Position numbers and translations under genes: made by a program
In this document: in pieces, positions 17,708-40,298 of the stretch
How the letters are laid out: each line of letters begins with the position of its first letter
Position numbering within the stretch: position 1 is the first letter of the stretch
Notes under the pieces: generated by a model
The model's database searches: none
Seen by the model: the letters and a program-made list of their open reading frames with translations, nothing else
Told to the model about the DNA's origin: nothing
Assembly (NCBI GenBank): GCA_903927945.1
Contig: CAIYOZ010000088.1
Span: 1 to 40,702 of the forward strand
Source: an uncultured Bacteroidales bacterium
Lineage (GTDB): Bacteria > Bacteroidota > Bacteroidia > Bacteroidales > Paludibacteraceae
Length of the DNA: 40,702 bases
Reading direction: 5' to 3'

Positions 17708-17820
17708 AGAACCCCTGACCCCTAAAGGGGAATAAGACAGGGATCTGAGAGGGCTGAAAGAAATTAGAATAATAAAATAAAAACATGTAATCCGGTTCCC
17801 CTTTAGGGGTTAGGGGTTCT
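17708..17820. repeat. Inverted pair of CCCCTAACCCCTAAAGGGG elements between E2 and E3
   Basis: Left arm AGAACCCCTGACCCCTAAAGGGGAA (17708-17732) and right arm TTCCCCTTTAGGGGTTAGGGGTTCT (17796-17820) are reverse complements at 24/25 positions. Confidence 0.93.
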
Positions 17821-19190: not shown

Positions 19191-19193
19191 AAA

Positions 19194-19361
19194 GGAACCC
19201 CTGGTCCCTAAACGGTAACCGGGATATGTTCGTTTACTACAGTTTAATCAATGAATAATAATTAATACTACTCCTCTTACTCCCCTTTAGGGGTGGGGGT
19301 CATCTTAAATAAAGAATTAATACTAACTACTCTGACTCCCTTTAGGGGTTGGGGATCATCT
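19194..19361. repeat. Degenerate CCCC/GGGG element followed by two inverted, tandem copies
   Basis: GGAACCCCTGGTCCCTAAACGG at about 19194-19215. TCCCCTTTAGGGGTGGGGGTCATC and CTCCCTTTAGGGGTTGGGGATCATC lie in about 55-bp tandem units, each starting ATTAATACTA (19261, 19316). Confidence 0.85.
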
Positions 19362-19378
19362 CTTAAATCATATACATA

Positions 19379-21838
19379 ATGCCAAAATTACAGCACATTG
19401 ATCCGGCAAATAAACGTAAACCGGGTTTTGTGGAATTCCTGCCAATTCCAGTCAATCAATATCAAAAAACCGTTAAAGACGAAAAAGGGAATTTCTCCAA
19501 CGAAGAATTCAAAGCCATTTATCATGACATGGTGTTGATCCGCGAGTTTGAAACCATGATCAACCTGATCAAGACTGTGGGAGCCTATAACGGGACCTCT
19601 TATAATCACCCGGGTCCGGCTCACTTATCCATTGGTCAGGAATCAGCAGCTGTTGGTATGGCCTGGACACTAACCGTGGATGACTTCATTTTTGGAAGTC
19701 ACCGAAGTCATGGAGAAATTCTGGCAAAGGGAATGAGTGCCATCCATCAATCGGACGATAAATACTTGTTGGATGTCATGGAAAGTTTTTTTGAAGGTGC
19801 TGTAGTGAATGTTGTAAAGAAAGACTTTAAGGGTACTACGAAAGATCTGGCCCGTCGGTTTTTAGTATATGGTACGTTGGCTGAGATATTTGCACGCGAA
19901 ACCGGATTTAACCGCGGATTAGGCGGATCAATGCATGCATTCTTTACTCCTTTCGGTGTATATCCGAATAATGCTATCGTAGGTGGATCGGGAGATATTG
20001 CAGTTGGTGCAGCACTTTATAAAAAAGTAAACCGTCAGAAAGGTCTGGTAGTTGCCAATATTGGTGATGCCTCTATGGCGTGCGGTCCTGTATGGGAAGG
20101 AATAACCTTTGCAGCCATGGATCAGTTCAAGAAACTCTGGCAAGGTGATATGAAGGGCGGATTACCTGTGATTATAAATATCATGAATAATCAGTACGGT
20201 ATGGGTGGTCAGACTTGTGGTGAAACCATGGGTTATGATGTCGCTGCACGTATTGGAGCCGGGGTAAATCCTGAACAAATGCATGCCGAACGGGTGGATG
20301 GATACAATCCGTTAGCCGTAATTGATGCCTACAAGCGCAAACGTAAAATTATAGAAGCAAAGAACGGTCCGGTGTTGTTGGACGTATTGACATACCGTTA
20401 TAGCGGACACAGCCCTTCGGATGCTTCATCCTATCGCTCAAAAGAAGAAGTTGAAGCCTGGGAAAAACATGATTGTATCGGTTCTTATGGAAAACAACTG
20501 ATGGATGCCGGTGAAGCAACTCAATCGGACCTGGATGGAATATGGATGGATGTGAAAGCATTGGTATATGACATGTTCCTGAAATCCATCGATGATGAAG
20601 TTTCGCCCCGCATGAGAAATGCCCAGATTATCGGCGACATGATGTTCTCAAATGGTTCGGTGGATTCACTATCGACTGCTACCCCGGATGTTCTGCTACC
20701 GTTAGCTGATAATTCACGGGTGAAGAAAATAGCTGCCAAGGAACGATTTGCATTTGATGCAGACGGGAAGCCATTCAGCAAAATGAAGCAATTTCAGCTC
20801 CGTGACGGCATCTTTGAAGCGATGATGGATCGATTCTACAAAGACGCATCGCTGGTTGCTTACGGCGAAGAAAACCGTGATTGGGGAGGAGCATTTGCCG
20901 TATATGGTGGCATGACTGAAGCCTTGCCTTATCACCGGTTGTTTAATTCGCCTATATCCGAAGCTTCCATTGTGGGAACTGCCATTGGGTATGCCATGTG
21001 TGGCGGACGGGTAGTTCCTGAAATCATGTATTGTGACTTCCTGGGACGTTGCGGTGACGAAGTATTCAATCAAATGCCTAAATGGCAGGCCATGAGTGGG
21101 AATGTGCTGAAAATGCCTATTACCCTGCGCGTTTCGGTAGGTTCCAAATACGGGGCGCAACATTCACAGGACTGGACCTCACTGGTAGCACAAATACCGG
21201 GTATCAAGGTTTGTTTCCCGGTGACTCCGTATGATGCAAAAGGATTGATGAATTCAGCGTTACAGGGAACAGACCCAGTGATCTATTTTGAAAGTCAACG
21301 TATCTACGAAATCGGAGAACAGTTCCACAAGGGTGGTGTTCCTGAAGGTTATTATGAAATTCCTTTCGGGGAACCCGATATTAAAAAAGAAGGAAAAGAC
21401 ATTACTTTCCTGACTGTAGGTCATACACTATATCCTGCGTTGCAGGCTGCTAAAGAACTGGAAGAGAAATATGGCATGTCGGCTGAAGTGATTGATGCCC
21501 GTTCGATGGTTCCGTTCAACTACGAACAAGTGGTTGAATCGGTAAAGAAAACAGGGAAAATAATCCTTGCCAGTGATGCCTGTACGCGTGGTTCATTCCT
21601 GAATGACATGGCGGCAAACATCAGCACGCTTTGTTTTGATTACCTGGATGCCCCAGTATGTGTGCTGGGATCACGCAACTGGATCACCCCGGCATTTGAA
21701 CTCGAAGATTCATTCTTCCCACAAGTAAGCTGGTTCCTGGATATGATCAACGAACGCATTCAACCGCTGGCTGGTTATATTTCAGGGCAGAACTTTACGG
21801 ATGCAGAGTTTATCAGAAGATCGAAATTAGGTGTCTAA
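19379..21838 (+). CDS. Fused alpha-beta 2-oxoacid dehydrogenase E1
   Basis: 819 aa. N-terminal TPP-binding alpha half (GGSMHAFF, VVANIGDASMACGPVWEG) and C-terminal transketolase-like beta half (FNSPISEASIVGTAIGYAMCGGRVVPEIMYCDF). Confidence 0.92.
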   Translation: MPKLQHIDPANKRKPGFVEFLPIPVNQYQKTVKDEKGNFSNEEFKAIYHDMVLIREFETMINLIKTVGAYNGTSYNHPGPAHLSIGQESAAVGMAWTLTVDDFIFGSHRSHGEILAKGMSAIHQSDDKYLLDVMESFFEGAVVNVVKKDFKGTTKDLARRFLVYGTLAEIFARETGFNRGLGGSMHAFFTPFGVYPNNAIVGGSGDIAVGAALYKKVNRQKGLVVANIGDASMACGPVWEGITFAAMDQFKKLWQGDMKGGLPVIINIMNNQYGMGGQTCGETMGYDVAARIGAGVNPEQMHAERVDGYNPLAVIDAYKRKRKIIEAKNGPVLLDVLTYRYSGHSPSDASSYRSKEEVEAWEKHDCIGSYGKQLMDAGEATQSDLDGIWMDVKALVYDMFLKSIDDEVSPRMRNAQIIGDMMFSNGSVDSLSTATPDVLLPLADNSRVKKIAAKERFAFDADGKPFSKMKQFQLRDGIFEAMMDRFYKDASLVAYGEENRDWGGAFAVYGGMTEALPYHRLFNSPISEASIVGTAIGYAMCGGRVVPEIMYCDFLGRCGDEVFNQMPKWQAMSGNVLKMPITLRVSVGSKYGAQHSQDWTSLVAQIPGIKVCFPVTPYDAKGLMNSALQGTDPVIYFESQRIYEIGEQFHKGGVPEGYYEIPFGEPDIKKEGKDITFLTVGHTLYPALQAAKELEEKYGMSAEVIDARSMVPFNYEQVVESVKKTGKIILASDACTRGSFLNDMAANISTLCFDYLDAPVCVLGSRNWITPAFELEDSFFPQVSWFLDMINERIQPLAGYISGQNFTDAEFIRRSKLGV

Positions 21839-25050: not shown

Positions 25051-25176
25051 CCCCTAACCCCTAAAGGGGAATTGGAAAGTCATTAATAATAAGAGAATTA
25101 AATACTATTTAAAAAACCATCTAATAAGTTCTTAGAATCTAAACTAACTTAGTTCCCCTTTAGGGGTTGGGGTCAA
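25047..25176. repeat. Inverted pair of CCCCTAACCCCTAAAGGGG elements between the aldolase-SDR and Zn-ADH genes
   Basis: Left arm TTGACCCCTAACCCCTAAAGGGGAA (25047-25071) contains the TGA stop. Right arm TTCCCCTTTAGGGGTTGGGGTCAA (25153-25176) ends 9 nt before the ATG. The arms are complementary apart from one indel. Confidence 0.95.
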
Positions 25177-25185
25177 TTTATATAT

Positions 25186-26463: not shown

Positions 26464-26507
26464 TTGATTTAGTTGATTAGTTGATTAAGTTGATTGGTTA
26501 ATAGGTT
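26454..26507. repeat. TTGATTTAG/TTGATTAG degenerate tandem array
   Basis: aagttgatttagttgatttagttgattagttgattaagttgattggttaatagg. The first unit encodes the last residues and the TAG stop of the Zn-ADH. Confidence 0.9.
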
Positions 26508-26513
26508 GCGCTG

Positions 26514-26533
26514 CCCCAAGCCCCTGAAGGGGA
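26514..26533. repeat. Solo CCCC..CCCCTGAAGGGG element
   Basis: CCCCAAGCCCCTGAAGGGGA, a variant of the CCCCTAAAGGGG family. Confidence 0.75.
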
Positions 26534-26618
26534 TGTTAAGAGTGGGGTATGCTGAGATTCATGGTTTTTGTACATTAAGTTGACTGGTAAATTGAGTTGA
26601 AGCAGTTGGTGAAATAGG

Positions 26619-26680
26619 TAACACAGAACACGGAACACGAAACACGTAACACTGAACGCGGAACTCGGAACGCTGAACTG
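26619..26680. repeat. GAACACGGAA-type degenerate tandem array
   Basis: taacacagaacacggaacacgaaacacgtaacactgaacgcggaactcggaacgctgaactg. Confidence 0.9.
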
Positions 26681-26736
26681 TTCAAACTCTCAAACCTCTT
26701 AAAATAAGTATTAGACAATTTTTTAAATATAAAAAG

Positions 26737-37075: not shown

Positions 37076-37084
37076 TTTTTTAAT

Positions 37085-37144
37085 GTCTAAAGTCTAAAGT
37101 CACAAGTCCAAAGTCGTTTGACTTTAGACCTTAGACCTTAGACC
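37085..37144. repeat. GTCTAAAGTC-type repeat with inverted arms between araA and araB
   Basis: gtctaaagtctaaagtcacaagtccaaagtcgtttgactttagaccttagaccttagacc. Confidence 0.92.
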
Positions 37145-37152
37145 GGTTGTTT

Positions 37153-39576: not shown

Positions 39577-39607
39577 CTCTTACTCCCCTTTAGGGGTTGG
39601 GGGTCAT
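39577..39607. repeat. CCCCTTTAGGGG element abutting the araR 3' end
   Basis: CTCTTACTCCCCTTTAGGGGTTGGGGGTCAT; nearly identical to the copy at about 19275-19303. Confidence 0.92.
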
Positions 39608-39608
39608 A

Positions 39609-40298
39609 TTATAATGAAAAATGTAATCCCTGTTCTATCAACTGATCGTATTTTTCTTTGTTGTAATTATAATAGAATGCTCCTCTTTTGGAAGAACTCT
39701 TATCCTTTTCTTCCAGTTTTTCCAGTATATCCATGGTAAGCAATTTCTTTCTGAAGTTACGTTTGTCGATGGTCTCCTGATAGATGGATTCGTATAAACT
39801 CTGTAACGTGGGCAGTGTAAAAAGGTCGCCCAGTAAATTAAACCCTATCGGCCTCACAGCAGCCCGTTGTTGAAGTAACTTGATGGTATCCCTCACCATT
39901 TTGTTGTGATCGAAAACAAGTTCAGGTAGCAGCGTGATCTTTACCCAATGGGCATCATGTTTTTCTGCCAGCGAAGTATCAAATTTTTCTATATCCACCA
40001 AAGCATAATACGCCACTGATATTACCCGTTCCACATCCCGGTCTATATCTCCGTAAGCACCCACTTGTTCCAGGTAGATATCCTCAATGCCCGTAAATTC
40101 ACCAACTACCCGTTTAGCCGCTTCAGGAATGTTCTCCTGGGCATTGACAAACCCTCCCATTAAGGACCACCCCCCCCTGAAAGGTTCGATGGGTCGCCGG
40201 GATATAAGGATCTGCAGATCATTATCGCGAAAACCAATAATGATACAATCAACAGCAACTAGAAAGGTATCTTTGTTTTGGTAAAATGCAGCAGTCAT
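39609..40298 (-). CDS. araR: Nudix-fold winged-helix regulator of arabinose use (AraR-like)
   Basis: Nudix N-terminus (VDCIIIGFRDNDLQILISRRPIEPFRGGWSLMGGFVNAQENIPEAAKRVVGEFTGI) and a winged-helix-like C-terminus (RGAFYYNYNKEKYDQLIEQGLHFSL), adjacent to araDAB. A Nudix-family AraR is established in gut Bacteroidetes. Confidence 0.9.
   Translation of the reverse strand: MTAAFYQNKDTFLVAVDCIIIGFRDNDLQILISRRPIEPFRGGWSLMGGFVNAQENIPEAAKRVVGEFTGIEDIYLEQVGAYGDIDRDVERVISVAYYALVDIEKFDTSLAEKHDAHWVKITLLPELVFDHNKMVRDTIKLLQQRAAVRPIGFNLLGDLFTLPTLQSLYESIYQETIDKRNFRKKLLTMDILEKLEEKDKSSSKRGAFYYNYNKEKYDQLIEQGLHFSL

What the first reader, a model, noticed from the sequence alone, without database searches (positions are those of the whole stretch)
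17708..17820. 24/25-bp inverted repeat spanning the whole E2-E3 junction
The left arm starts on the base after the E2 stop and the right arm ends 14 nt before the lpd ATG. Each arm carries its own CCCCTAAAGGGG or CCCCTTTAGGGG palindrome, so a long hairpin or two small ones can form. The arrangement recalls REP/BIME-type elements, which can set segmental mRNA stability. That role is inference.
Basis: partly seen in the sequence, partly recalled or inferred. Interest (0 to 1): 0.7.

Follow-up and report, generated by a model that had tools for sequence, protein, structure and literature searches.

The report
REP-doublet-like repeat between E2 and lpd
The hairpin-forming sequence between two enzyme-complex genes is one copy of a short repeat scattered about 100 times through this Paludibacter-like genome, typically placed right after a gene's stop codon or just before the next start, where it probably alters how the shared mRNA is translated or degraded.

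Summary
As RNA, one long stem (-55 kcal/mol, z -6.2) beats two small hairpins by far. It is not unique: the core CCCCTAAAGGGG occurs 101 times in this genome (0 for the reversed control), up to 282 times in sister species, mostly intergenic, often as inverted pairs. Some copies in a closed sister genome are compact units with a conserved spacer and two different inner ends, so it is a dispersed REP-doublet (BIME/REPIN)-like or MITE-like element. The gene-facing side sits at stops (mode 10 nt from stop to core) and about 19-38 nt before starts. It lacks the GT[AG]G foot, and 78 sampled Y1/RAYT loci show no enrichment; the mobilising enzyme is unknown. The E2-lpd gap in Bacteroidales is bimodal (44 of 78 at most 40 nt, 34 at least 70 nt). 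Long gaps are often bracketed by inverted repeats, of unrelated sequence in different species. The REP/BIME likeness is supported; the mRNA-stability role is plausible and untested.

The parts
17708..17732 (+). Left arm: gene-facing flank AGAACCCCTGA plus core CCCCTAAAGGGG; starts on the base after the E2 stop; inner flank AATAAGA = 'A-type' end
17733..17795 (+). 63-nt spacer, diverged; partial similarity to spacers of other copies in the same genome; no TAnnTTTG-type Bacteroidetes promoter seen by eye
17796..17820 (-). Right arm (reads CCCCTAAAGGGG on the - strand); inner flank AACCGGATTAC = 'B-type' end; ends 14 nt before the lpd ATG
17708..17820 (.). Whole element: one inverted pair of the genome-wide family
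25058..25166 (.). Second complete pair in the window: cores at 25058 (+) and 25155 (-), bracketing the gap 25051-25185
19191..19378 (+). lpd-E1 gap: exact core at 19282 (-), a degenerate left arm just after the lpd stop, and a second degenerate right arm near 19335-19355
39585..39596 (-). Single copy, core 12 nt after the stop of the 39609-40298 (-) gene and facing that stop
26521..26532 (+). Variant core CCCCTGAAGGGG in the gap 26464-26736

Best explanation
The repeat is one copy of a dispersed, non-coding REP-doublet-like (BIME/REPIN- or MITE-like) element of the Paludibacter-like genus: two similar arms in inverted orientation around a spacer, probably inserted into what was a gap of some 15-40 nt between E2 and lpd. 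In transcripts that read from E2 into lpd it folds into a 25-27-bp stem-loop whose foot is directly at the E2 stop and 14 nt before the lpd start. Shown: the anatomy, copy number, family, position bias, and the presence of the same or other inverted repeats in this gap in relatives. Inferred: that the pair arose as one mobile unit, and that the stem acts mainly at the RNA level, by hindering ribosomes finishing E2 and/or blocking 3'-5' exonucleases, so that E2 and lpd-E1 mRNA segments can have different fates. The site is probably tolerated because this position spares the coding regions and the lpd start region; a selected function at this junction is possible but not shown.
For: Family: 101 cores in the genome, 0 in the control; 40 of 48 genomes of the genus carry it, up to 282 copies. 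86 of 100 fetched cores lie outside called genes although about 81% of that DNA is coding. Unit: compact copies with conserved spacers in closed genome G015, e.g. L282:15075-15155; three copies in the window's own genome align with the window element along its length, spacer included; the outer flanks of two arms at one locus match better than permuted arms, p=0.0002. Position: 34 of 40 stop-facing cores lie within 34 nt of the stop, commonest distance 10 nt. Insertion: E2-lpd gaps in 78 species are bimodal, 44 of at most 40 nt, none of 41-69, the rest 70 or more; G029/L151 has only 4 nt. RNA. E. coli REPs within 15 nt of a stop can stall ribosomes and lower translation (PMC12306157, citing Liang 2015); intercistronic structures protect upstream segments (PMC5927463).
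Against: The mobilising enzyme was not found. The spacer of the window copy is much diverged. The stop-edge preference in long gaps seen in G000 was absent in G015 (0 of 12), so it is not general. No RNA data exist here, and cotranscription of E2 and lpd is assumed. An exact empty-site pair between very close strains was not available; no target-site duplication was looked for systematically.
Confidence: 0.68

Rival explanations
1. The stem-loop is a selected intercistronic device that preserves translational coupling: pairing of the arms brings the E2 stop and lpd start close together (0 + 14 nt outside the stem, like the usual gap), and a ribosome finishing E2 opens the foot of the stem and frees the lpd start region.
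For: Stem foot at the stop and 14 nt before ATG. Different species have unrelated inverted repeats in the same gap with the same geometry: CCCCTAAAGGGG, GCCAATnTGCCAAT, GAACCAAGAGCCAAGA, GCTGTTAGCCGTTAGCT: 14 of 23 genus genomes score >=9, 13 of 41 gaps >=50 nt score >=11 against 6.1% in cross-paired gaps.
Against: Simple insertion of any inverted-repeat element into a short gap gives the same geometry. Many relatives have long gaps without inverted repeats (e.g. L138, L140, L145, L146). Bracketing repeats are also found in other tandem gaps.
Confidence: 0.15
2. It is a partial transcription terminator or attenuator between E2 and lpd.
For: Strong stem; weak terminator-like calls on both strands. 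Inverted repeats of another kind, with A/T tracts, are very common in convergent gaps of G015 (41% at score >=11).
Against: No U-run follows the stem: the bases after it are TATAAATTT and the UUCU lies within the stem. The family favours tandem gaps: 65 of 72 sites, 4 convergent.
Confidence: 0.1
3. It is a true REPIN mobilised by a RAYT (Y1 transposase) of this genus.
For: Doublet architecture; Y1 genes in 40 of 48 genomes; copy density correlates with Y1 count, rho 0.40, p=0.005.
Against: Both quantities scale with genome size (rho 0.46 and 0.51). G032 and G020 have 49-52 copies without a detectable Y1. 78 Y1 loci (300 kb) contain 12 cores, about genomic density, and several are flanked by other hairpins instead. 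No GT[AG]G foot.
Confidence: 0.12

Closest known systems
REP / BIME / REPIN elements (E. coli, Pseudomonas; RAYT-associated)
   Same: Short palindromic repeats, high copy, mostly extragenic, often inverted doublets with a spacer, some within 15 nt of stop codons
   Different: Foot is ACCCC(TAA/AAG/...) rather than GT[AG]G; core CCCC-TAAA-GGGG; no enrichment near sampled RAYT genes; spacer often diverged
Bacteroidetes TnpA-Y1 subclass 2.6 with 'atypical secondary structures' (PMC6006769)
   Same: Same phylum; repeated hairpins unlike the GT[AG]G type
   Different: Those flank the transposase gene; here the Y1 genes have other hairpins (CCCCGTTAGGGG, CCCCTACGGGG) or none
Bacterial MITEs
   Same: Small non-coding unit with long terminal inverted repeats, many copies, intergenic
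   Different: No parent insertion sequence with these ends was found; target duplication not established
Heptamer repeats (TAACTGA in Beggiatoaceae, Cyanobacteria and some Bacteroidetes, PMC4679880)
   Same: Seven-base period in the arm (AACCCCT AACCCCT AAAGGGG); placed beside start or stop codons; stop triplets in all three frames
   Different: Those are direct repeats mostly upstream of starts; here inverted pairs with hairpin cores

Membership tests
REP | Many copies, in extragenic DNA | tested here: met
   101 copies, 86 of 100 fetched copies noncoding
REP | Short palindrome able to form a hairpin | tested here: met
   CCCC-TAAA-GGGG core plus outer CCCC; arms fold alone at -7 to -8 kcal/mol
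REP | GT[AG]G tetranucleotide at the foot (canonical type) | tested here: not met
   Gene-facing flank is ACCCC + TAA/AAG/CAA etc. in the aligned copies
BIME/REPIN | Two REPs inverted around a spacer as the recurrent unit | tested here: met
   37 convergent pairs listed; compact units with conserved spacers in G015
BIME/REPIN | Cognate RAYT gene flanked by the same repeats | tested here: not met
   78 Y1 loci, 12 cores in 300 kb, about background density; not every Y1 gene of the genus was read
MITE | Terminal inverted repeats, no coding capacity | tested here: met
MITE | Autonomous element with the same ends | tested here: inconclusive
   Three convergent core pairs 0.7-3.2 kb apart enclose ordinary genes; only part of the genomes was read
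MITE | Target-site duplication | not tested
   No close-strain empty site was available
Intrinsic terminator | GC-rich stem directly followed by a U-run | tested here: not met
   Sequence after 17820 is TATAAATTT; only weak consensus calls
Curated RNA families (Rfam 15) | Match above gathering score | tested here: not met
   No match in the window

The most novel reading that the evidence does not exclude
Operon-internal gaps of Bacteroidales (E2-lpd, lpd-E1 and others) are slots that different lineages fill with unrelated, lineage-specific inverted repeats, several of about seven-base period, one arm against the stop codon and the other just before the start. The geometry, not the sequence, is kept, because the resulting intercistronic stem tunes coupling or segment stability.
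Probability: 0.2. Interest if true: 0.7.

Novelty: new variant of a known kind. Interest (0 to 1): 0.42.

Why it matters
It adds a high-copy REP-doublet-like family in Bacteroidales, without the usual tag and with no RAYT link found. Its copies sit where REPs are known to affect translation termination. The turnover of unrelated inverted repeats in the same operon gap across species gives a natural set of variants for asking whether intercistronic hairpins are tolerated debris or selected regulators.

Tried and rejected
RAYT linkage: no enrichment. Rfam: nothing. Autonomous element with the same ends: ordinary genes between distant cores. Exact-string literature searches gave no relevant paper. 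A Bacteroidetes-type promoter in the window spacer was looked for by eye only: none. First pass on relatives' E2-lpd gaps missed reverse-strand loci; redone. The null for bracketing repeats at E2-lpd is inflated by repeats shared among relatives, so the comparison is conservative; but several gaps share ancestry and are not independent events. A/B end bias between stop and start edges (Fisher p=0.027) is weak and not relied on.

Full report
What is there. The described inverted repeat exists exactly as stated: arms 17708-17732 and 17796-17820, 25 nt, 24 pairs, 63 nt apart, between genes whose products match 2-oxoacid dehydrogenase E2 and dihydrolipoamide dehydrogenase E3; the E1 gene follows at 19379. 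Folded as RNA the junction forms one stem of 27 pairs (-55 kcal/mol; 200 shuffles -32.5 +/- 3.65). Each arm alone gives only -7 to -8 kcal/mol, so the long hairpin is the expected form once both arms are transcribed; the small ones could exist only transiently.

It is a repeat family. The core CCCCTAAAGGGG occurs 101 times in the window's own genome (4.47 Mb, 450 contigs) and the reversed string not at all. In 148 genomes searched it is abundant in the genus (40 of 48 genomes carry it; up to 282 copies), scarce in other genera of the family and mostly absent in the order, with a few exceptions. Named relatives found through E2 are Paludibacter and other Bacteroidales. Aligned copies show a gene-facing flank ACCCC + 2-4 nt, the core, and an inner flank of two main kinds: A (..AAGA..) and B (..TTAC/TTAG..). 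37 convergent pairs were listed in the sequence read; in the closed sister genome G015 some are compact units with a conserved spacer (e.g. CCCCTAAAGGGGATTTTAATTACTTTCGTCTGGCAACTTGCTCTTGTTCCCCTTTAGGGG). Three copies in the window's genome align with the window element along its length, and the two arms of one locus resemble each other more than permuted arms (p=0.0002). This fits a two-armed unit that spreads and then decays; that the unit moves as one is inference.

Where the copies lie. Of 100 cores in 345 kb of fetched own-genome sequence, 86 are outside called genes although about 81% of that sequence is coding (simple codon-usage gene caller, start positions uncertain). The ACCCC side faces the nearest gene end: 34 of 40 stop-facing cores lie within 34 nt of the stop, commonest distance 10 nt, and start-facing ones cluster at 19-38 nt. 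In G015 this preference is absent in long gaps (0 of 12), so it is not universal. Part of the effect may come from elements that supply the stop codon themselves; for E2 this is unlikely because its C-terminus matches its relatives.

The E2-lpd gap in relatives. In 78 named Bacteroidales the gap is at most 40 nt in 44 and 70 nt or more in 34, nothing between. In 23 genus genomes with readable gaps, 9 hold the CCCCTAAAGGGG family, 4 an unrelated GCCAAT-type inverted repeat, 1 a CCCCAAATGGGG variant with the change in both arms, 8 a long gap without clear repeat, and 1 only 4 nt. Farther species show further unrelated repeats, and the lpd-E1 gap behaves alike. Some of these species are related, so the gaps are not all independent. 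In an unbiased 1.2 Mb of G015, 4.0% of tandem gaps have bracketing inverted repeats (score >=11) against 0.42% in cross-paired gaps; divergent gaps show no excess; convergent gaps show many, of terminator type.

How it may work. REPs within 15 nt of a stop can stall ribosomes and lower translation in E. coli (PMC12306157, citing Liang et al. 2015), and intercistronic structures protect upstream mRNA segments (malE; PMC5927463). The window element, with its stem foot at the stop, has the right position for both; which, if either, applies is not shown. I take the most likely account to be a REP-doublet-like element settled in a tolerated position, with an RNA-level side effect on E2 and lpd-E1 expression.

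Membership. It works like a REP doublet in anatomy. It is not filed as a canonical REP or REPIN: the GT[AG]G foot is absent and 78 Y1 loci show no enrichment. Copy density correlates with Y1 count (rho 0.40), but both scale with genome size, and G032 and G020 have about 50 copies without a detectable Y1. PMC6006769 reports atypical hairpins beside subclass 2.6 genes of Bacteroidetes, the nearest described case.

Noticed in passing
window 37076-37152: Tandem gap bracketed by an unrelated seven-base-period inverted repeat (GGTCTAAGGTCTAAGGTCTAAAGTC / GACTTTAGACTTTAGAC) right after a stop and before a start.
   Followed up: partly
L282:11700-18100 (G015:C1:791-798 kb): Array of small same-strand ORFs, most followed by a compact CCCCTAAAGGGG unit and a repeated text around TTGTGCTAAGCTACGCTTAACGAGG; may be an integron-like cassette array; a divergent Y1 gene lies inside it.
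   Followed up: no
L105, L108, L109, L111: Y1/RAYT-type genes of the genus flanked by arrays of other hairpins (CCCCGTTAGGGG, CCCCTACGGGG; mostly 51-nt spacing in L108).
   Followed up: partly
L163-L242, E2-lpd and lpd-E1 gaps: Unrelated inverted repeats in the same gaps in different Bacteroidales (AACACAAAGACAC, AACGCAAAGACGC, GAACCAAGAGCCAAGA, GCTGTTAGCCGTTAGCT, CGTCATTGCGAG and others).
   Followed up: partly
G015 convergent gaps (L243-L302): 41% of convergent gaps carry inverted repeats with A/T tracts, apparently two-way terminators.
   Followed up: no
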